Shown here: one piece after another, positions 17,920 through 59,354 of the stretch
Position numbering within the stretch: the first letter of the stretch is position 1
Layout: each line of letters starts with the position of its first letter
Assembly: GCF_037975245.1 (NCBI RefSeq)
Contig: NC_092565.1
Coordinates: 12,146,499 to 12,210,498 of the forward strand
Reading direction: 5' to 3'
Length of the DNA: 64,000 nucleotides
From: Apostichopus japonicus
Taxonomy: Eukaryota; Echinodermata; Holothuroidea; Aspidochirotida; Stichopodidae
Program-made: the position numbers and the translations under genes
Notes under the pieces: generated by a model
Told to the model about the DNA's origin: nothing
Databases searched by the model: none
Seen by the model: the letters and a program-made list of their open reading frames with translations, nothing else

Positions 17920-18330
17920 GCCCATTATCACTTAGCCATATGTGGATTTACTATGTATTATCTCATTCAATAAGGTCAAAGTCCTTTAAAATCTATATTA
18001 CTAGGATAACGACCTGGGCTAAGCTACCATGCTCGTTGTGCCAACACGTGTCTATATAAGCAGAGACTAGTGAGTCCCACCCAGTGTTATAGAGATTTCG
18101 ATCAGCGAATGCATGGTTTATGTATGGGGTTGAAACATAAATTATCAAAGAATGTTCACGCGTACTTCGGCGTGTGAATGTGGATAATATACACTATATC
18201 ATTACAGTGGTATGACATAGCACTTTTTCGACAATGGATTAGTATATAGGTGAATTACATTCTATGAAGGCCTATAATAGTTCGTTTATTATAGTTTGTA
18301 GAGTAATATTTTTTATAATATAACTATAGC

Positions 18331-18366
18331 TATAACCAGGGAGTTGTTATGGACTCCCTGCTATAA
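18331..18366. mobile_element. mini-hairpin insertion, copy 1 (TSD TATAA)
   Basis: A 26-bp hairpin (18336-18361) with ends CCAGGGAG and CTCCCTGC is flanked by perfect 5-bp direct repeats TATAA at 18331-18335 and 18362-18366. The loop GTTATGGA is shared with the copies at 24235 (inverse strand) and, with one change, 53093. It lies upstream of CYP26 coding exon 1. Confidence 0.65.
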
Positions 18367-19001
18367 CTTGCATTTTTTTTATTCTCTATACCGCACATAT
18401 TGAGTTGAACGGCGATCTGAATTTCACAACTGGCGGGGAAACGCAAGAACCTTTAATTGTATATAATTAGTTAAGACTAGGCCTATATACTAAAACCGTA
18501 AGCACGGAACTCCGTGATCATTTCTGTTCCTACTAATGACTCTTCATTTGGTATGATGGATATTTCTTGTACAATAATTGCTGAATAATCGTAAGATAGA
18601 GTATGACTCGACGGATCAGAAATCAGCACGCAGCTGCATGGCCGTGACGACATCAAAATACTACATTATCATCATACAAAATGACCAGCCTAGCTGACGA
18701 GGGAAGACTTGTGTTGGTGGGTGCATTTGGGTGGGGGAGGGGTGGGGTTGGTTGTGAGAGGGTAGGGACCGACAGGGAGTTCAGAAATGTCACTTGAAAG
18801 GGAGGACGAGATTATGTTCTTGTAACTGACGAAGTTTGTGACAACTTTAACCAACGTTTTCGACTATATAGTCCATATTTCTTGATGGAAGCAAATTGTC
18901 GCCATTCTCCGCTTTATTCTTTCCCTATTGAGTAATCATGAATACAATGTATAGTATAGTGAGTATAGGCTAAACTCGTTTATGCGTCTACCTTACAGTT
19001 A

Positions 19002-22200: not shown

Positions 22201-25200
22201 GTTGTCTAGAGCAATGTCTGAACTTATTCTACACGTTTCCGCCCTTCATTGCTTCACGTTCCTCAAGTGCATCCTCTCATTTAAAAACCGTTCTTAGATT
22301 TAGGCGACTTAAATTATTACTTCCGTACGTCACCGCATGCTGTTTGAGTACACGTAGTTGCATCTATTATGACATTTCCAGAATCATACTTATATCACAT
22401 TAAATGGTTATTTCATTTCTTGTTTCTTGTTGATATATATTTATACATATGTATATACGTACATATATATATATATATATCAATATATATCAATATATAT
22501 GGTATGTTTTCTTTGCCCAGGGTTCACAGTATTACGAGGATAAGTTCAAGATTTACGGTCGTCTATTTATGACCCATCTCTTGGGTGCGCCTACCATTCG
22601 AGTACGGGGATCGGACCACCTGCATAAAATACTTCATGGCGAAGATGACATTGTGTCTTTTGAGGTAATGTTACATCATTCGGTTACCTAATCGTAACAC
22701 GATTCATTTATTTCTATTCAGAAGCTGTTCAGGTCATTTGAACTAATCCTTTGATGAGAACAACAAAGTTTGCCCTGATTCTTATATGCAAATTAGGTTC
22801 CACCATGATTATGTCTACATCCGCCGTGAGGTTGCAAGCGTTTGGTTTAGCCTTAGGTTATATACCGTGCATCAATTTATCAGTTATATTATGCCACAAT
22901 TCTTTTACGTGTTGAGAGAAACCATATTGGGAACGTCGAGAGGGTTCAGCACATGCAGCTTGCGAAACTATTCTATCCGTCCATCATGCCAGTGAATTGA
23001 CACGTGACAAATATAAGTTTATCAAAAAAAGTTTGTTCCTACAAAATTGTACGTTGCATAACAAGGTTGCATTTGTTAATTGATATTCAGAATGCAGCGT
23101 CGTATAGGCGTGTTTGGAGCCCAAATTTGTTGGTTTTTGTAAAGAGGAGGTGGAATAAAAAAATTGTAAACAAAAATATGCCCTTAAATGGAAAATGTGG
23201 ATTCTCTCAATCTCCGGAAGCCTTACAAAATAGTTTGATTTTATAATCAGTTTCCTTGAAATTATGGCCGTAGGAGAGGTAAAGGAGGATGAGAGGAAGG
23301 GTTGAGAGAAGAACCCTTCCTTGGTTTTCACCTCAATAGTCTCATTTTTGTAGCCCACAATTAACATTTAAATAATTTGATATCTAAGATTGCAAATGAA
23401 AAAATAAACAGGGGGAGAAAGGAGAACGGAAAGTTTCCGTGATTTCTCCGTTCTATGTTCTTACCTGGAATATATTTCTCTTTCTTCTAGTATCCGAAGG
23501 CTATCACGGGTATCCTTGGTAAAAACACCCTAGTTCAGGCCAGAGGACAACACCACGTCATTCTACGTAAGAGGGTAGCAACTGCTTTTACCCACTCTGC
23601 CTTGGAAGGATACCTACCTCTTATTACAGTAAGTACAAAATAATGTTACAGTCAAGGCTAGTATCTAATGAAGAAACATCTCCACCCCCTCCCAATCCCT
23701 CCCCTCCCTTCCCTTTTTACAGCACATTTACATATACTAAATCGCTCATGCGTTTTCTGTTGTAGATACTCCCGGTAAGCGAACTTTAACAGGGATTTAT
23801 AATTCGTGATTTTTTATTGTTTTTTTTTGGCATAGCTTCACACACTCTGTCCTACTGGGAGATGCTGGGGGTCAGGTAGTATAAGTTGCCGCAATACCAT
23901 GCAGCCAAGTCTTTGACACGCGAGTAAATATACTACGATGGTGATCATTGGGCTGTTCATTATCACACAGTTAGCCAGGGGCGTCAATCTCATATTTGGA
24001 AATGACTAAACAAGGATAAAACTGAAGGAGTGTGCGCCTAGCGCACACTGTTAGTGCGTTGGCTCAAAGCCTTTTTGGGGGTGGAGTTCAGGGGCCAGCT
24101 TTATGGCCCTTGATGGGGTCCAGGGACCAAAGCTCCTGCGGGGGCCCAGGGGCAGACTCACATCTAGAAATGTTCAAGTTTGCTTGTGTTTGGTCCGTGC
24201 ATTCACAATTATGTCAGTCATAAATATAGTTTAACCAGGGAGTTTTTCCATAACAACTCCCTGGTTTAACAAAAGGCCCCATCTGACAAGTAATTAGACT
24301 TAAAATTAAAAAAGACTTATCTATTAAACATCCGGGTGTCATGATTTATAAAATTGAAAATTTTTAAGCAGTAGTCGAACTCTTCACCGGAAGCATGTAA
24401 AAAAATCCCCCACCCTCATCCCCACGCACGCCACACCTGATATGTATTTCAAAGTGTGTTGCGATGGCAGAGGGAGAGAGAGAGAGCGAGAGGTGTAGGG
24501 AGAATAGTTTTTCGTTAAATATGTTCTCGAAGTCACAATCAGTTCTAGCCTTGATACAGATGTAACCACATCTCATAAACAAGCACATTTATGAAGGTTT
24601 AAGTTTCCATACGCCAATTTAGGGTTTTCTCACTTATTGGTGAATTTGACTTCATTTTTCTACAGGAGCCGATAAAGGACGCTATTGAGCACTGGTGCAA
24701 CCAGCCACGCACCATCACTTACCGTTCGATGCAGGAGCTTGTATGCAAGTTGAACGGCTCCATACTATGTGGCTTTCATTATAGCGATACCGACGTCGCC
24801 GAGATAACGGAGCTATTATTTCAAATCGATAACGGTATATTAGCTCTACCAATCGACCTACCGAATACAGCATACAGAAAGGTACGTAATGTCCCGCACC
24901 TCTCAATATCGAGTCCTTTTCAAACCGCGATGTGTGACGGTATCTATCTCGTCTGTGTCCATATTCCAATCCTAATTAAAGTCATTTGGAAATTGTTTTT
25001 CTTCTATCTATTGAATTACTTAGGCCATGCAAGCAGGGAAAAAACTTCGAGAAAAGATCGCCGACAGGATACGAATGAAAGAAAACTTATCAACCCAAGA
25101 GGACGACCAAGATGTTCTACGGGTGCTCATGGATGCCGACTTGTCTCACTTTGGTAGTAAAGGAGAGAGTCACGAAATCGTGTCCGACAATGCATTCGAT

Positions 25201-29822: not shown

Positions 29823-32291
<2,469 letters not shown>

Positions 32292-49900: not shown

Positions 49901-52900
49901 CTTCAACAGTTTCTTACATACAAAATTGCTATGTCTACATACATACATACACACACGCTTAAATAAACACATACACGCATACATGTACACGCTTATACAC
50001 CCACACATACATACACGCATACATACATCTGTCATAAACACCTAGGTCTATGGGTCAGGCTGGTCTATGTTTACTTTCAAAAGTAGCTGACTTTCTCAAC
50101 ATTGTACACATTTGCTCTGACATTATAATTAAATTGACTACACCAAACAAACTTACCCTCCTCCTTGACATCACGCACATCTGAATCAATTCTCAAAAGA
50201 TGAAAACGACAGCCACTTTCTTTCGGCAGTGTGTATGTCTCTTCGTCAAACTTTGGCATTTTCATCCTACTGATTCTCTTGGCATTCTTCACGATACTTT
50301 TCCCCCCTTCGTCGACGCGGTGATTCGTTTTCAAGTCTACGCCCAAGCCTTGTTCTTCGGCTATTTTAAACGTGTCTTCGAAGAAATTTCCGGGCTCTAT
50401 GGACGGCAGCTGCCGAATGTCTCCGACCAGTACTACCTTACAGAGACGGGAATCTTTGAGCAGGATTTCGAGCAACCTCGCAATGATTGTCACGGCAACC
50501 ATGCTGCACTCATCAACTACTAGCATTTCAGTGGAGGCAAATTTCCATTTTGCCTCACTGTACTCATATTTGACTGTTTTCTTCCAGACCATGTGACTGT
50601 ATATGACACTATGAATGGTATGAGATGATAGGTCACACTTCTTACCCAGAAGAGAAGCAGCCTTACCAGTTGGTGCTGTGAGCAGAATTTCTGGCTCTTC
50701 AGAGATATCGTCAGGCGACAATTTCCTATCTAGCTCTTCAGAGCTGACATTAGGTAACAATTTCCGTTCTAGCTCTTCAGAGCTACCATCAGGCAACAAT
50801 TTCCTTTCCTGCTCAAGTTTACGGTGCTGGAAGTATGTTGTTACCAGTTTTGCAATCACAGTCGTCTTCCCACAGCCACCCATACCCGACAGTATTGTCA
50901 ACGGTTTGGAGCGGATATATTCTACAGCTGTTTTCTGGCTATCATCTAACCCCTCCCAGTCTTCGGCATCTAACTTTGGAAGATACATCCCGTCATGTGA
51001 CCTATCTTCACCGGTTATAATCTGTTTCATATATTTGGCAACTTTCTTTTCAGCATCCCAGTAGCGCCAGAGATAGAGCGACGGCAAATCTTTTGATGTC
51101 GATGTGTTGTGTCGTGGTTCGCACCTTGCTGCCCTGACGGTGTCACGGCAGAGAAACATCTGCGTCTTGCCTCTGTCTTTACATTTATGCTGAACGAGAC
51201 GAGTCAAGTTTTTCTTGCCGGGACAATGAATAAATGTGTGTCCATTTCTTCTGCAGTAGGTCTTCAACTTGTCATACACAGTAAGGTTGTCCTGCATAAC
51301 TTTGTCCAATTTTAAGAAGACACCGGACCGTTTAAGATCGTTTAGCCTGGCTTCACAACCACTAACATTGTACTTGCGGTGGAGAACCTGTCAAGATATA
51401 CCAATAACATAATAAGATGCATTAATATCTCCTTTAACACCTTGTGACTGTTGACTGTTTTTAGTCATTAAACACATCATGTTGACATGTTTTACTTTAA
51501 AAAAACATCATATAATCATATAATTAAAGTGTCTTCTATGAAAAGATCACAAAAGAACCAAGAGAAGGCATCTTTCCAACAGAAGAACCTTTTGCCTTAT
51601 TTTCTCTCTCTCTTATGATGTGACAATTACTATATAAAAATTTTAAAAATAAACATTTCCACATAACGTGGATCTCTTAGTCCATGTTATGTAAGTAAGG
51701 TAGCAAAAATCACACATACAAAAGAGAAAAAAAGAAAAAAGCAGAAAAACAAAAATGCCTGGAACAGTTTCATAAATCTTTTCAAAATATCTCTCCCAGC
51801 TATTCTAATGTTTTGTTCTTTCCTCTCAGGCAAGTTTGAGCTAGCAATTAAAGAATCGTAAGTCACAGAAATTTACATGTGACACTAAAAAAACCATTAA
51901 ATATTGTTGTTTTCTATAAAAACGTGGCACACTGGCAATGTCAGTTTAAGTAAATTTATTCACATGAAATGGATAACATTCGTGTACAATCTGGACATTA
52001 TACGGACCATAAATGATGAAAGATTTCAATAGCAAGATAATCCAAATAACACCTCCCTCCTCCTCCTCCTGTAAAACTTTTCTTCCAAAATACTAAGAAA
52101 CAGGATTTTTATTATCCTTTATGGCTAGTACTCACATAGCTAAATGCAAATTCCCAAGGGGTTTTCTCCACAGCTTCACTCAACGCTTCAAAGTTTGGTC
52201 CATTATTAGACATTTCCCTTTTCTCCTTCTGAGGCTTTAAATTAAAATTATGAGTTAAGATGCTGAAAGCCTTCTTGGGTAGGATAGATGGCAGAGTCCA
52301 GAATAACCGAGGATAATCTGTTGCCCGTTTGATCAACTTTGTGTGGTCTGCCAGCAAAGAAAGACCACATAGTTTAGATATACAGTAGTAATATCCTAAA
52401 AGCCATCAGCTTAGAAGGCAAGAAACCCTTAAAGGGTGTGAAGACTCGCGCACAAAGAAATGTCTCATGCAGGTAATCTGACCTAGTTTCGAATTAGGTG
52501 TAACAGAAGTGTTAGACACCACCATCGATCCCAGAAAATAAACACACAGCTTGCTACCGTTGGTAATTAGACACTAGTGTACAGTCAGTACATACAGTTA
52601 CGGTCAATACCCACAACACAGTGTACATAGCAGCGATGGACATCTCAGTCCTAGATAAAAGATAACACATTTCATTACTGTCTGCATTTAGTAGCGACAA
52701 GAAGAAAAACTTCACTTGCCAGCAACGAAAAGTTAACTTTTTCAGAGCGCTGCATGCAGTTTGGGGCGAGTCTTCAATGCCTTTAAAGCAGCATTTTGCG
52801 TTTGGTCGCCGTTTTCTACTTTTTTGACATGTCCATCCATTTTTTTACATGTATCAATCACAAAACAGCAAACTAAGATATTAGCCAAGTTTTTTTCTTG

Positions 52901-55304
52901 CCAACAATGTTACTTGGCGAGTAATTAAGGATATTTGCAGATAATGAGAAGAGTGTCCTCGACAGATTCTACAGTTAAAATTAATCGCATACAGTTCCGC
53001 CAAACCCACTAGTTTGAATTCAACCAATCAGAGATGCAGGTTTAGTTGTGAGCCGTTGCTAAAAATAGATTCAAGACTTTGCGTTGGTACAACCAGGGAG
53101 ATGTAATGGAACTCCCTGGTACAACTGCAATATAAACTGTACACGAATCAAGCATGGTGTTGTATTGGTCGATGACGTTTCGTAGTGTTTAAATATTCAT
53201 ATTATGGGCGAGGTTTATTGGGTTCTAACAGTAAATATCTTGGAGAAAAACAAAGTTGAAAGTTGCAAATTTTTCGACTTTTATGCCACCATGTGAAGTA
53301 AGATTTAAATAGATAAGCTAGTTATGTATGTAGTTAGGGCATAGTGGAGTCAGTGAGGTTGAGAAAAATCATAGAAAAGGACGCAAAATGCTGCTTTAAA
53401 TGGATTGAGCAATGAATAAACATTCAGATAAATTGCTAGACAAACAAGATATGGTCACCATCTGCTGTTTCTTCATTAACACAACTGCATGCCATTTATA
53501 TTTCATGATATCAGACAACAATAAAATACAAAGAAATTGAAAAATAACAAACATTTTTCAGAGCTGTTTTTTTTAAATTGTGTTGAATATACTGGCACAA
53601 ACTTGTGGTGTAATTCTCCATCCCTACAGTTTCTGGCAAATTCAAAAAAGCAATGATGACGGCATCAGTGTTGCAGTATTATTAACATTTTAGGAAATAA
53701 GGAATCTTCAATTCAAAGCCTCGCTACGCATTCCATTATAAATACGGGCAAACCGATATGAACGTTTGCTTAGCTACCAAACTAATTTAACTGCAAGGCA
53801 TTGGCAAGGGTTGCATTGGTTATCAATTTATGTGGGTGAGGGGTAGGGGGGTGTTAAGATTCATAAACTCTGGATTAAGATTAAACACAATAAGAAAGAC
53901 ATTTTCAGCATCATAATGACATGTGTGAAATTCAAAGCAAACTTCTGCCACCAAAATTACCCTCATTAATATTTGAATTCACCCCCCATTTCAAACTTTT
54001 ATCTCTATAGCCTGTTTGTTGCACACAAATCATTTAAAAGATGATGATTTTTATTTGACCACACACATTTGCAGTCTATCCTACTAACAACTGTACATAC
54101 CTGATCTGGAGGAGTACTGCGAGAATAATTCAACCGCAGAGAACTCTTGGTCTGTTTTACACACCATCTGTTTCAAAGACTGTGGTAACTCCAAAACTTG
54201 TTCAACAGTCAAAAATATCTTGCGGCTTTCATCGTCTTTCTTGGACACCCTTACAATGACATCTATGATGCTCTGGAAAGGTTGTTGGTTTTCACTAGTC
54301 ATTAGCTTTTGTACATACTGAGATATCATCGGTATGTCCCATGTCTTCTTTATTCTGTACTTTGGAACGTCCTTCACTTTCTTTGTCTTTGAGTTGATAT
54401 TTGCTTCAATCTCCCACCAGGAATCCGTAAATAGGAATGGCCCGATGATGGTTATCCTCTTCTTGGCAATTTGGTCATAAAAGTCAACTGTTTGAAAACA
54501 GAAGAAATGTCTCAGTCTACTTTATAATGCGGTGACTCAGGATGAAAGTTTTAATTCCATATATTACAAAACCTTTAAAACAGAGAACTACAAACTGTGC
54601 AGGTTTAATATGCAAGACATAGAGTAATATTTATAAAGTTTGGTCCATCAATCGAAACGATTTCGACTGAGTAGTTAACACAAGAGACCGTTGACTGTCA
54701 GATCCTCAATTTATTCAAGAAAAAAACTTCAAAGGTGATAGGAAAACAAAGACCACTGCTGTGTCAGATAACAGTACACTTACGAAATGGTATCTGATAG
54801 TAGATCCTACTATGATAAAGGGTAATTTATACATCTAGGAAGGTAAAGAACAGTTTTTTTCTTTCTTTATTTGATCAGAGATAACACTCTGGTTACATTT
54901 TAGTCTTCAACTGAAGTGTTTTTTTTTTTGGCGTGACCATTTACTAGTTGCTACATGTAACCATTTAAGATCCAGAAAATGTTTCATCTGCTATTTGAAG
55001 GTAAAAAACAAACAACTAAGAGGTATCTCATGTTTTGGCTAAAAAAAAAAATTTTATATTTACTTTGAGCACTAGCCATATTTCAGTTTACAGTACCTTC
55101 CCTTCCAGAGACAAGTTGTGACTTTGACTGGAAGGCACCATTTTCAACAGCTCTGATATCATCCATTTCCATGAAATCATCTTCAAGTTCTTCCTCGTCA
55201 TCAGCATCATCACCCGACTGATGACATTCAGCTTCCGAAACTTTGGATTCTTTCTGGACAATGCAGATGATAGACCCACAAATTGTTTGCAATGACTCAT
55301 TCAT
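45112..55304 (-). CDS. HELB: DNA helicase B (HELB), 8 coding exons
   Basis: HELB is a nuclear SF1B 5'-3' DNA helicase that binds RPA-coated ssDNA and acts in replication-stress recovery and control of end resection. Exons (minus strand): 55304-55097, 54487-54101, 52347-52136, 51387-50157, 49475-49391, 48050-47429, 47160-47011, 45819-45112. Phases 1,1,0,1,2,0,0 all fit; total 1200 aa (human 1087). Motifs: Walker [11 protein letters not shown] (436-445), TAPTGKAAS (506-514), Walker B VVDECSM (559-565), [12 protein letters not shown] (591-602), [14 protein letters not shown] across exons 7/8, and motif [12 protein letters not shown] (986-995). N-terminal segments also match vertebrate HELB ([22 protein letters not shown]). 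Odd features: a triplicated acidic repeat between Walker A and TAPTG, a long acidic insert in exon 6, and a GPASSP repeat tail. The start ATG has an in-frame TAA five codons upstream. Confidence 0.94.
45225..45615 (-). repeat. 18-bp coding minisatellite (GPASSP repeats) in HELB exon 8
   Basis: About 21 units of an 18-bp repeat (CAGGGCCAGGACTGGAAG type on the + strand) encode variants of [12 protein letters not shown] and GSATSP. Higher-order duplication of multi-unit blocks is visible. Because 18 is divisible by three, all three minus-strand frames stay open, which gives two artefactual overlapping ORFs. Confidence 0.95.
46509..46711. repeat. (TA)n array with TTTTATA interruptions
   Basis: About 200 bp of TA repeats on the 5' side of the SINE at 46712, in HELB intron 7. 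Confidence 0.9.
46712..46869 (+). mobile_element. tRNA-derived SINE with (TA)n tail, copy 3
   Basis: A box TAGCCTAGTGGTTAG (46753-46767) and B box GGTTCGAATCC (46797-46807), body ending TTACGATTTTCATT, then a (TA)n tail from 46868 to about 46990. It lies in HELB intron 7, antisense to the gene. Confidence 0.8.
46870..46990. repeat. (TA)n tail of SINE copy 3
   Basis: TA repeats with GATTGATATA interruptions occurring twice, ending 20 bp before the HELB exon 7 donor. Confidence 0.9.
47011..47160 (-). CDS. HELB: HELB exon 7
   Basis: 50 codons, [11 protein letters not shown] to [11 protein letters not shown] (helicase motif V region). Acceptor ctttgtag, donor gtaatt. Confidence 0.92.
47429..48050 (-). 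CDS. HELB: HELB exon 6
   Basis: From [18 protein letters not shown] through DKICCRKN to [11 protein letters not shown]. The roughly 140 residues between DKICCRKN and LRNGEIF are mostly acidic and low-complexity ([13 protein letters not shown] and similar) and much longer than the matching part of human HELB. Acceptor atttaccag, donor gtaagt. Confidence 0.92.
49040..49205 (-). repeat. diverged repeat related to 60985-61140
   Basis: Lies in HELB intron 5. Shared words with 61 kb include GATCATGTGTA, TTCCCTTTC, TGGTGATGC, GGGACTG and GGATCA in the same order. Here the corresponding frame is closed by stops. Confidence 0.5.
49391..49475 (-). CDS. HELB: HELB exon 5
   Basis: 85 bp, [15 protein letters not shown] to ITFTR (split codon). 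Acceptor cttccatag, donor gtatgt. It matches the TSQFIAFRR segment of vertebrate HELB. Confidence 0.88.
50157..51387 (-). CDS. HELB: HELB exon 4 (helicase core)
   Basis: 1231 bp, [17 protein letters not shown] to VKEEG. It carries Walker [10 protein letters not shown], Walker B and the [12 protein letters not shown] motif, and the acidic 45-bp triplication. Acceptor tatcttgacag, donor gtaagt. Confidence 0.95.
50695..50820 (-). repeat. in-frame 45-bp triplication in HELB exon 4
   Basis: Three tandem 15-residue units of the form [13 protein letters not shown], at protein residues about 461-500, lie between Walker A and TAPTGKAAS. Vertebrate HELB has its acidic RPA-binding segment here. Confidence 0.85.
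52136..52347 (-). CDS. HELB: HELB exon 3
   Basis: [17 protein letters not shown] to [18 protein letters not shown] matches HPWKLGFS of vertebrate HELB. Acceptor tttgctggcag, donor gtgagt. Confidence 0.9.
52433..52792 (-). mobile_element. TTAA-flanked MITE, copy 2, in HELB intron 2
   Basis: A 360-bp inverted copy of 4480-4834, flanked by TTAA at 52429-52432 and 52793-52796, with ends AGGGTGTGAAGACTCGC and GCGAGTCTTCAATGCCT. It shares its right-hand TTAA with the next element. Confidence 0.8.
52797..53396. mobile_element. second TTAA-flanked inverted-repeat element, abutting the first
   Basis: A 600-bp element with 15-bp perfect terminal inverted repeats AGCAGCATTTTGCGT, flanked by TTAA at 52793-52796 and 53397-53400. 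The ends differ from those of the neighbouring element, so this is a separate family. It carries the mini-hairpin at 53093. Confidence 0.75.
53088..53124. mobile_element. mini-hairpin insertion, copy 3 (TSD TACAA)
   Basis: A 27-bp hairpin (53093-53119) with ends CCAGGGAG and CTCCCTGG and perfect TACAA repeats at 53088-53092 and 53120-53124. It is nested inside the 600-bp TTAA-flanked element, so it is younger than that element. Confidence 0.7.
54101..54487 (-). CDS. HELB: HELB exon 2
   Basis: [20 protein letters not shown] to [21 protein letters not shown] matches FPITGAWWRVKV of human HELB. Acceptor caaacag, donor gtatgt. Confidence 0.9.
55097..55304 (-). CDS. HELB: HELB exon 1
   Basis: [19 protein letters not shown] then a strongly acidic stretch ([18 protein letters not shown]), comparable to the acidic N-terminus of vertebrate HELB. 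Donor gtactg. Confidence 0.85.
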
Positions 55305-57045: not shown

Positions 57046-59354
57046 CCAAAGAAATAAGATATGACTCATAATTTGTAAACTAAGGAGTAAAGTTTTAGAA
57101 AATATATTGGAATTTTCGGTCTCCCTGGGACCTTCGTCAACATTACTGAGCAGTTGAATGAAAAGTACAATATGTAACACAATGAAGTATGACGCTAGAT
57201 ACATGTAAGTTGCAACAAACTGCATGGCTAGTACTGTCTATGATTATCCCCTTATTATCATGAACCTATTCACCTATTCCTTTAGATACGCAATGTACTG
57301 TTCAAATTGGGTAGGCCTTACTTTCTGTAGCCTAGCATTCCAGTGTAATTTGGCGTAGGCCAAAGTGTAATTAATTTAAGCCTATCGTTTCATTCGTTTG
57401 GCCTACATATATGTTACTTTTGTACTCTGTTAGACTAGAACTTGGTGTCGACATTTGACTCCATATTTAGCAGTCACGATCGTGTACTTTATCTTGACCA
57501 AATAGACTGAATCCCTTAGTTTATTCCACCTTAAACTTACCAAATTTTACCCGATGCGTCCTGTCCGAATAGGTCAAAATAGGGCACTGCGATAATCACT
57601 TGCTTGTGGCATCGTTATGATCGTTGCGGTTTCAATAGGCTCCTCTTCTGCAAGGAGTGATAAATGTCTAGTGAACTCTAGCCTCTTATCGCATAGTTAA
57701 GTCAGGGAGCTGCTGTTAGAGTAGCAGCTCCCTGGTTAAGTGAAAGTTAAATATAGTACATAAAAAATCCCCGCAGATATTAGATACGGTGGCCGAAAAA
57801 ATCCATAGTTGCGACACACTGTGAACAATGTGTCGTGCTTTCTCAATCGCAATAATAATATGGAAGGCTTTTGTCAGAAAATTTGAATTTCTGTAAGAGA
57901 TTTATAATTCATGAACAAACGTTGCACACTTTCAGTGGTGTTACAATGCCGGGCAGGGCCTTTTCTAAGAATTCACAAATGTGTGTGTGTGTACGGGGGG
58001 GGGGGGGGGGCGGGCAGTTAACTTGCACTGTATTATACCTATAATAATGTTTATATGATTTACAAATATCGTGGAAATTTTGGGATAAAATACTCGAAAG
58101 TTCGAATTGAAGTATAAAAATTCCCTGTCGTGTTGTACAGGGACGTCGATCCGTGTCCTCCGGATTGGAAGGGCCACTTACCAATACCAATTAAGCTCAT
58201 CATGAATACAAATGCAGTGTGCTTGATTAGAAGCATACACAAATTAGCTGTAAGACGTACCCCCTTCTTCGCCTGTACCTATCATTGTTACGTTTTCATG
58301 AAGCGAATTATTTGTACCTCTTCAAATAATTTTATGAGTACGGTCGATGTGTATAACTTTTCAACAATGATGTTCGAAAATTCTTACTGATGTTTTCTTA
58401 TTCTTTCGACATGTAATGCTTTCCATAATTTGAAGGAAAAATAATCTATTCAAACTATCGTGTTAACTGTATTGGTTATATACCTCAATTAGCAATTTTT
58501 GAAGTGGCCCGCTGCTACCCGTAAGCAGGGCCCCTGATCCCTCTATTCACTAAGATCGACGCCCGTGGTCAGGTCTGTTAAGCTCTTTTCTTTCTACACA
58601 TGAGTCAGACGGCAGTGAAAGCCGTTATCACACCTCCAGCCTTGACTGGGTTGACTCCTTTGTTCAAGTTACGTTCATTATACTATAGGCTAAACGTAAT
58701 ACCTGTGTTCCTTTTCATACATTGTTTCCCCTGCACAATGGATCAAGTCCATTCCACTCCCACTTTAGCAGACATTTGCCAAAAAATATTACGTCATAAT
58801 CAAGTTTTGGGATTCAGGGAAAGTTACTGAAATGATGGCGCTCTCACTTGTTTCTTCCTACTATAGGGTCTCTATCTCTATATACAGCTCTGTTTCCTGC
58901 CAGAAATATACGGCTCGGTTTTCTGCTAGATATCCGACATTTTAATCAAAATGGAGACGATGGAATATGATCATTACCCCCTCGGGTTTTACTTCATTAT
59001 GATGGAAACGATAAAACATATACATGTACCCAAAACGATCAATTTGCATACTATAAAGTAAAACTATGCGAAATTAACGCAATTAACTGTATAATAATAA
59101 TAATGTACAAGCAAGCACGGCTCCAGTGTACGGAAATCATTAATGACACAACAGGCTGTGAAATCTATAGAAGACGGGTGTGTAACACATTATAGGGCCG
59201 AGTTAATAGACGGCAAATTCAAAGAGCCAGCCACAGTTTAAAACCTGGTTTTTTTTATCCCATATGTTGCATCATCAAAAGTGTTGATAACAACATTGTT
59301 ATATAGCGCCGACAAACCGGAACTGTTTACTTCTGCGCTTCAAAATGAAATTGT
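57046..59354 (-). repeat. inverted duplication, arm B
   Basis: The inverted partner of 29823-32180. It carries the mini-hairpin at 57702 that is absent from arm A, and keeps a 76-codon open frame at 58600-58830 (+) almost identical to that on arm A. Confidence 0.8.
57697..57740. mobile_element. mini-hairpin insertion, copy 4, with empty site in the paralogous arm
   Basis: A 34-bp hairpin (57702-57735) with a stem of 14-15 bp is flanked by perfect TTAAG repeats at 57697-57701 and 57736-57740 (CTTAA on the other strand). At the matching place in arm A (about 31518-31530) the sequence reads GCATAGTTAAGTGAAAG on the inverse strand, with one TTAAG and no hairpin. Confidence 0.8.

What the first reader, a model, noticed from the sequence alone, without database searches (positions are those of the whole stretch)
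57690..57745. A 34-bp hairpin captured as an insertion: filled site in one duplicate arm, empty site in the other
Arm B of the inverted duplication has GCATAG-TTAAG-hairpin-TTAAG-TGAAAG. Arm A (inverse strand, around 31518-31530) has GCATAGTTAAGTGAAAG with a single TTAAG. The extra DNA is exactly one hairpin plus one 5-bp repeat, as expected of an insertion with a 5-bp target-site duplication. Three more hairpins with the same ends (CCAGGGAG...CTCCCTGG) occur at 18336, 24235 and 53093, each with its own perfect 5-bp repeat (TATAA, TTTAA, TACAA; this one reads CTTAA on the other strand). At 26-34 bp they are far smaller than ordinary MITEs and consist of little but the inverted repeat. I do not know a described family like this.
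Basis: partly seen in the sequence, partly recalled or inferred. Interest (0 to 1): 0.88.

Follow-up and report, generated by a model that had tools for sequence, protein, structure and literature searches.

The report
Hairpin scars left by jumping genes
Thousands of tiny hairpins in a sea cucumber genome are best read as scars left where large P-type jumping genes cut themselves out, which makes the genome an archive of how such elements leave and how the cell heals the cut.

Summary
The hairpin and its empty counterpart are real, but the target duplication is 7 bp, not 5: GTTAAGT|CAGGGAG...CTCCCTG|GTTAAGT. The genome (most likely the sea cucumber Apostichopus japonicus) holds at least 3,000 such hairpins against 59 for a backwards control. 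In an unselected stretch, 17 of 32 unique-flank sites have a perfect 7-bp duplication and 24 of 32 at most one mismatch.

Long elements with the same ends exist: four inverted pairs (4.5-13.1 kb), 25-33-bp identical ends, 4 of 4 perfect 7-bp duplications. Both 12-13-kb ones carry P-type transposase RNase H halves. Yet 0 of 37 sampled type-1 hairpins keep 20 or more nt of that repeat and 18 of 37 stop at nt 18. P transposase is known to cut 17 nt inside its ends, and the two commonest junctions are what 2-nt annealing of 18-nt tails gives.

So the hairpins look like excision scars, not miniature transposons. The focal hairpin is of a second type whose parent was not found; the cleavage is inferred.

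The parts
57703..57734 (-). focal hairpin, type 2: (minus strand) CAGGGAGCTGCTACTCTAAC (20 nt arm) + AGCAGCTCCCTG (12 nt arm)
57696..57702 (+). left copy of the 7-bp target duplication GTTAAGT
57735..57741 (+). right copy of the 7-bp target duplication GTTAAGT
31519..31525 (-). unoccupied target GTTAAGT in the inverted duplicate (arm A)
18337..18360 (+). type-1 hairpin, 24 bp; duplication CTATAAC at 18330-18336 and 18361-18367
24236..24263 (-). type-1 hairpin, 28 bp; duplication GTTTAAC at 24229-24235 and 24264-24270
53094..53118 (+). type-1-like hairpin, 25 bp, GTACAAC on both sides, carried inside a larger dispersed repeat (not an independent event)

Best explanation
The hairpins are scars of excised transposons. 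A large P-superfamily-type element with ends CAGGGAG... inserts at a 7-bp site (roughly G/C-T-NNN-A-C/G) and duplicates it. When it later leaves, the transposase cuts the outer strand about 17-18 nt inside the terminal repeat, as P transposase does, so each side of the gap keeps a single-stranded tail of about 17-18 nt. The cell joins the two tails head to head, mostly by 0-2 nt of pairing and with trimming of one tail. What remains is duplication + tail + inverted tail + duplication, that is a 17-40 bp hairpin. Arm B of the window took such an element after the arms had duplicated and then lost it; arm A was never hit. Shown: 7-bp duplications, numbers, long elements with the same ends and duplications, P-type RNase H halves in two of them, cut-off of the arms at nt 17-18, junction classes. 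Inferred: the staggered cut itself, the joining, and that type 2 (the focal hairpin) had a like parent.
For: Copy number: at least 3,000 CAGGGAGN{0,25}CTCCCTG places vs 59 backwards (3,000 looks like a cap); 962 vs 1 for the 8-nt ends. 7-bp duplication: 17 of 32 perfect, 24 of 32 within one mismatch, in the unselected stretch of contig C1; sharp edges of the 7 positions. Parents: 17 exact sites of CAGGGAGTTGTTATGGAATGGAG, 0 in the control; 8 of the 17 form four convergent pairs of 4,560, 4,480, 12,042 and 13,118 bp with 4 of 4 perfect 7-bp duplications GTTTAAC, GGTAATG, GTCTGAC, CTGAAAC. P-type transposase: PF21787 at E 1.1e-27 and 1.8e-27 in 628-aa open frames, and PF21789 at E 6.6e-6 on the same strand, inside the C3 and C17 elements. 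Cut-off: 0 of 37 type-1 hairpins reach 20 nt of the parent end, 18 of 37 stop at exactly 18; genome-wide 1,829 sites hold the first 17 nt but only 17 the first 23. Known 17-nt staggered cut (PMC7776569, section 7 read; PMC10983969, passages). Junctions: the 28-mer (7 sites) and 25-mer (5) are the two products with 2-nt pairing predicted from an 18-nt tail. In-between products: 83-bp L106 = 18 nt of an end + 65 nt of the parent's left end, duplication GTATGAC; 68-bp L108, duplication GTTCGAC (compared by eye). One-arm remnants: L016 duplication-15 nt-duplication, L098, L099, L102 with 18 nt only.
Against: Long parents are very few beside thousands of scars; only four pairs were seen. No parent was found for type 2 (the focal hairpin), and type-2 arms reach 20 nt, not 17-18. 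PF21788 (GTP-binding insert of P transposase) gave no match in any of the four long elements. The two 4.5-kb elements hold no PF21787/21788/21789 match, so they would need help in trans. The junctions would also arise by small central deletions in a 36-bp perfect palindrome, and such full palindromes exist. The hairpin sample was limited to at most 39 bp by the search pattern, which leaves out some long arms; the 17-mer/23-mer count does not have that limit but includes copies carried in the dispersed repeat. 15 of 32 unselected sites lack a perfect duplication.
Confidence: 0.74

Rival explanations
1. The hairpins are themselves mobile: ultra-short (25-40 bp) non-autonomous elements moved in trans by the P-type transposase, their arms trimmed afterwards because perfect palindromes are unstable.
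For: Copy number, perfect duplications, near-identical 25- and 28-bp forms at several unrelated sites, full 36- and 40-bp palindromes, nested and tandem hairpins with their own 7-bp duplications.
Against: No reason for arms to end at nt 17-18 of a 25-33-nt parental end. P transposase binds internal 10-bp sites (PMC7776569 section 7), for which 25 bp leaves no room. One-arm remnants between perfect duplications (L016) cannot be mobile. Full palindromes, the presumed moving form, are rare: 0 of the 40 type-1 rows is a 36-mer.
Confidence: 0.13
2. In-place shrinkage: full elements lost their interior by incomplete gap repair or slippage after insertion, without a tail-leaving excision.
For: In-between products exist: L106 (83 bp), L108 (68 bp), L107.
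Against: Such deletions should leave arms of all lengths; of 1,829 sites with the first 17 nt only 17 run to nt 23. It may still explain the longer minority.
Confidence: 0.08
3. Ordinary hairpins of another origin (transcription terminators, RNA genes, chance).
For: None found; no Rfam family other than three tRNA matches in the window.
Against: 7-bp duplications, the empty duplicate arm, backwards controls of 1 and 59, and long elements with the same ends.
Confidence: 0.01

Closest known systems
P element of Drosophila and its excision products
   Same: Terminal repeats of 31 vs 25-33 bp; duplications of 8 vs 7 bp; 17-nt staggered cut vs arms that stop at 17-18 nt; RNase H transposase halves of the same Pfam families; partial gap-repair products (P details: PMC7776569 section 7 and passages; that P scars keep terminal-repeat ends is recalled, with general support in PMC3878927 passages).
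   Different: Thousands of scars beside a handful of parents in one echinoderm genome; parents of 12-13 kb; 7-bp duplication; GTP-binding insert not detected.
Galileo (P superfamily, Drosophila)
   Same: 7-bp duplications with consensus GTANTAC/GTATTAC, palindromic GT...AC target (PMC4168063, PMC2775673, passages).
   Different: Galileo has very long repeats and is known from full or long copies, not from hairpins; terminal letters differ.
MITEs
   Same: Terminal inverted repeats and target duplications, high copy number, no coding.
   Different: 17-40 bp with no body of their own; arms cut off at a fixed point inside the parental repeat.
Small dispersed repeats of cyanobacteria and REPs of bacteria
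   Same: Hairpins of 20-40 bp in many copies (recalled; seen only in listings).
   Different: Bacterial; no P-type parent.

Membership tests
P superfamily (long elements) | Transposase with P/THAP9-type split RNase H fold | tested here: met
   PF21787 (E 1.1e-27, 1.8e-27; 628-aa frames) and PF21789 (E 6.6e-6 both) inside 2 of the 4 long elements; 0 of 2 for the 4.5-kb ones
P superfamily (long elements) | GTP-binding insert (PF21788) in the RNase H fold | tested here: inconclusive
   40 matches in the genome, none in the four long elements at E <= 0.001; the two halves lie about 2.8 kb apart, so it may be diverged or split by introns
P superfamily (long elements) | Terminal inverted repeats (31 bp in P) flanked by 7-8-bp duplications with a GT...AC-type target | tested here: met
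   25, 25, 33, 33 bp exact and 4 of 4 perfect 7-bp duplications; 15 of 17 perfect unselected duplications have T at position 2, 13 of 17 A at position 6
P superfamily (long elements) | 17-nt staggered cleavage inside the ends | tested here: inconclusive
   Inferred from arms that stop at 17-18 nt; no biochemistry possible
[quoted passage not shown]
   No search made
hAT superfamily | 8-bp target duplication | tested here: not met
   7 bp; scars of hAT are said to be hairpin-derived and short (PMC3878927 passages). A search with a hAT family did not complete
MITE | Short non-autonomous element that moves as such, with its own body | tested here: inconclusive
   Duplications present, but no body beyond two truncated ends; movement not testable here

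The most novel reading that the evidence does not exclude
The elements are removed from somatic cells wholesale during development: the assembly matched here was made from longitudinal muscle (PMC10344927, passages), so thousands of hairpins could be scars of programmed or near-complete somatic excision, with full elements kept in the germ line. Nothing here shows it; it would explain why parents are so rare.
Probability: 0.06. Interest if true: 0.93.

Novelty: new variant of a known kind. Interest (0 to 1): 0.68.

Why it matters
Excision scars of cut-and-paste elements are usually studied a few at a time. Here one genome appears to keep thousands, from one recognisable family, with parents still present. 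That would give a natural record of where the enzyme cuts (17-18 nt), how the host joins such tails, and how often elements leave compared with how often they stay. It also warns annotators: abundant tiny hairpins with perfect target duplications need not be miniature transposons.

Tried and rejected
5-bp duplication and 8-nt ends: rejected by the 7-position match. Transposase genes with PF21788 as direct parents: the five loci fetched (L093-L097) showed no CAGGGAG ends with a 7- or 8-bp duplication. Long type-1 partner for L098, L099, L102: none within about 8.2 kb. Similarity of P0072 to P-type transposases of this genome: best E 0.082, not significant. Pfam on the two open frames of L128: nothing below E 0.06. 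Searches for a published account: listings showed no paper on such hairpins in sea cucumbers; only these ten searches of one open-licence library were made. Scans planned but not made: type-2 17-mer, CATGGAG and CACTGATC family counts, empty copies of the dispersed repeat.

Full report
1. Where we are. The window is G000:C5:12146499-12210498 of a 671.6-Mb genome in 35 contigs. A helicase-B frame at 50077-51309 is 97% identical to an Apostichopus japonicus protein over 16% of its length, and two open frames from another locus match A. japonicus proteins at 88 and 94%. The published A. japonicus assembly has 671.60 Mb and 34 scaffolds and was made from muscle of one female (PMC10344927, passages).

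2. The observation. The hairpin at 57703-57734 is present and arm A carries the same site without it. The direct repeat is 7 bp, GTTAAGT. The three other hairpins also have exact 7-bp repeats: CTATAAC, GTTTAAC, GTACAAC. A blind scan of the window found 7 hairpins with repeats, 4 of them these, against a mean of 0.23 in simulations. The copy at 53094 lies in a larger dispersed repeat with 22 other fetched copies, so it is not an independent event.

3. Genome-wide. CCAGGGAGN{0,25}CTCCCTGG has 962 places against 1 for the pattern read backwards. CAGGGAGN{0,25}CTCCCTG has 3,000, probably a cap, against 59. I fetched 79 distinct sites with flanks. In 44 with unique flanks, 26 have a perfect 7-bp duplication and 33 at most one mismatch. 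The first list demanded C and G next to the ends, so this sample is partly selected. In the unselected stretch of C1, 26 of 48 are perfect, and 17 of 32 with unique flanks, 24 of 32 within one mismatch. Position by position, 34-40 of 44 match at the seven sites, 11 and 10 of 44 just outside; permuted flanks give a mean of 0.09 perfect cases of 44, at most 2. Among the 17 perfect unselected duplications T at position 2 occurs in 15 and A at position 6 in 13.

4. Two types of arm. Type 1 reads CAGGGAGTTGTTATGGAA, type 2 CAGGGAGCTGCTACTCTAAC. The window holds type 1 at 18337 and 24236 (and, carried along, at 53094); the focal hairpin is type 2. Of the 58 sites left after dropping 21 that are carried in the dispersed repeat, 40 were sorted to type 1 and 18 to type 2; at least two of the 40 (L057, L026) share only the 7-nt ends, lack a duplication and are probably chance. 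Usually one arm is nearly full and the other shorter. The 28-mer with arms 18/12 occurs at 7 sites, the 25-mer with arms 18/9 at 5, a 29-mer at 3, a 27-mer at 3.

5. Long elements. A search for ends 50-110 bp apart gave 58 places, 0 in the control, mostly neighbouring or nested hairpins plus a few longer copies. The longer left end CAGGGAGTTGTTATGGAATGGAG has 17 exact sites and 0 in the control. Eight of the 17 form four convergent pairs: C2:29714454-29719013, C12:11435185-11439664, C3:19626415-19638456 and C17:23626432-23639549. Their flanks carry perfect 7-bp duplications in 4 of 4 and the ends are identical for 25, 25, 33 and 33 nt. Identity of the first 23 nt is built into the search; the duplications and the further identity are not. 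A fifth convergent pair (C17, 46.7 kb) and the seven other sites were not all followed; three of them are L106-L108.

6. The transposase. PF21787, the N-terminal part of the RNase H fold of P/THAP9-type transposases, has 45 matches in the genome; two lie in the C3 and C17 elements, in 628-aa frames without stops, E 1.1e-27 and 1.8e-27. PF21789, the C-terminal part, has 16 matches; two lie in the same elements on the same strand, E 6.6e-6. PF21788, the GTP-binding insert, has 40 matches, none in the four elements. The 4.5-kb elements have none of the three. The middle of the C2 element codes for stretches 83-88% identical to an uncharacterised A. japonicus protein of 460 aa of unknown role.

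7. Why scars. P transposase cuts the outer strand 17 bp inside its 31-bp repeats (PMC7776569, section 7 read; PMC10983969, passages). The donor site must then keep tails of 17 nt. In this genome 1,829 sites hold the first 17 nt of the end and only 17 hold the first 23. Of 37 sampled type-1 hairpins with an arm of at least 10 nt, none reaches 20 nt, one reaches 19, eighteen stop at 18, four at 17 and four at 16. The parental repeat runs on to nt 25-33, so the stop is not its natural end. Two identical 18-nt tails can pair their last two bases (AA) at two inner places, which gives exactly the 25-mer and the 28-mer; a 17-nt tail gives the 24-mer seen at 18337 and the 27-mer. These classes make up 16 of the 40 type-1 rows; the 29-mer needs joining without pairing, and other rows carry substitutions or filler. 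Products expected of interrupted gap repair are present: L106 and L108 keep 65 and about 57 nt of the parental left end with perfect duplications. One-armed remnants occur (L016; L098, L099, L102).

8. What speaks against it. Parents are few. Type 2, to which the focal hairpin belongs, has no known parent and arms of up to 20 nt. Central deletions in a perfect 36-bp palindrome would give the same junctions. The hairpin sample excludes forms above 39 bp. Nearly half of the unselected sites lack a perfect duplication, as expected of older scars but not proof.

9. Verdict. That these are transposon-derived 7-bp-duplication sites is as good as shown. That the type-1 parent is of P-superfamily type is well supported (two of four long copies). 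That the hairpins are excision scars is the best explanation, about three in four; for the focal type-2 hairpin it rests on analogy.

Noticed in passing
window 57349-57364: A second tiny palindrome, TTTGGC-GTAG-GCCAAA, flanked by AGTGTAAT on both sides; the aligned arm A seems to lack it.
   Followed up: partly
L002:1411-1432 and L002:2959-2983: Two palindromes with other ends, CACTGATCTGTACAGATCAGTG and CAGAGCCTTTATATATAAGGCTCTG, each with a perfect 8-bp duplication (GTTGTATC, ATTGTACC): perhaps scars of further families.
   Followed up: no
L032, L007:2743-2778, L112, L113, L116: A CATGGAG...CTCCATG hairpin family with 7-bp duplications (one mismatch in several), sometimes inside type-2 hairpins or next to CAGGGAG hairpins at one target.
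   Followed up: partly
L003, L110, L116; one search list: Hairpins spaced by exactly one 7-bp target copy: the same site was hit more than once. Five listed places show it, two of them evidently copies of each other.
   Followed up: partly
L109 and L117: Three arms between one perfect duplication (ATCTATC, ATCTCAC): a 19-nt arm joined to a whole palindrome. Template switching during repair is a guess.
   Followed up: no
L115 (C17:34977248-34977355): A 108-bp unit with CAGGGAG ends alternating with GTCAGAC in a tandem array: a satellite in the making from element plus duplication.
   Followed up: no
window 30164-32179 and 57054-59123: The inverted duplication itself: blocks 90-97% identical, about 25-29 kb apart.
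   Followed up: partly
window 53040-53180: A dispersed repeat that carries a hairpin at one fixed place in at least 23 copies; copies without the hairpin were not searched.
   Followed up: partly
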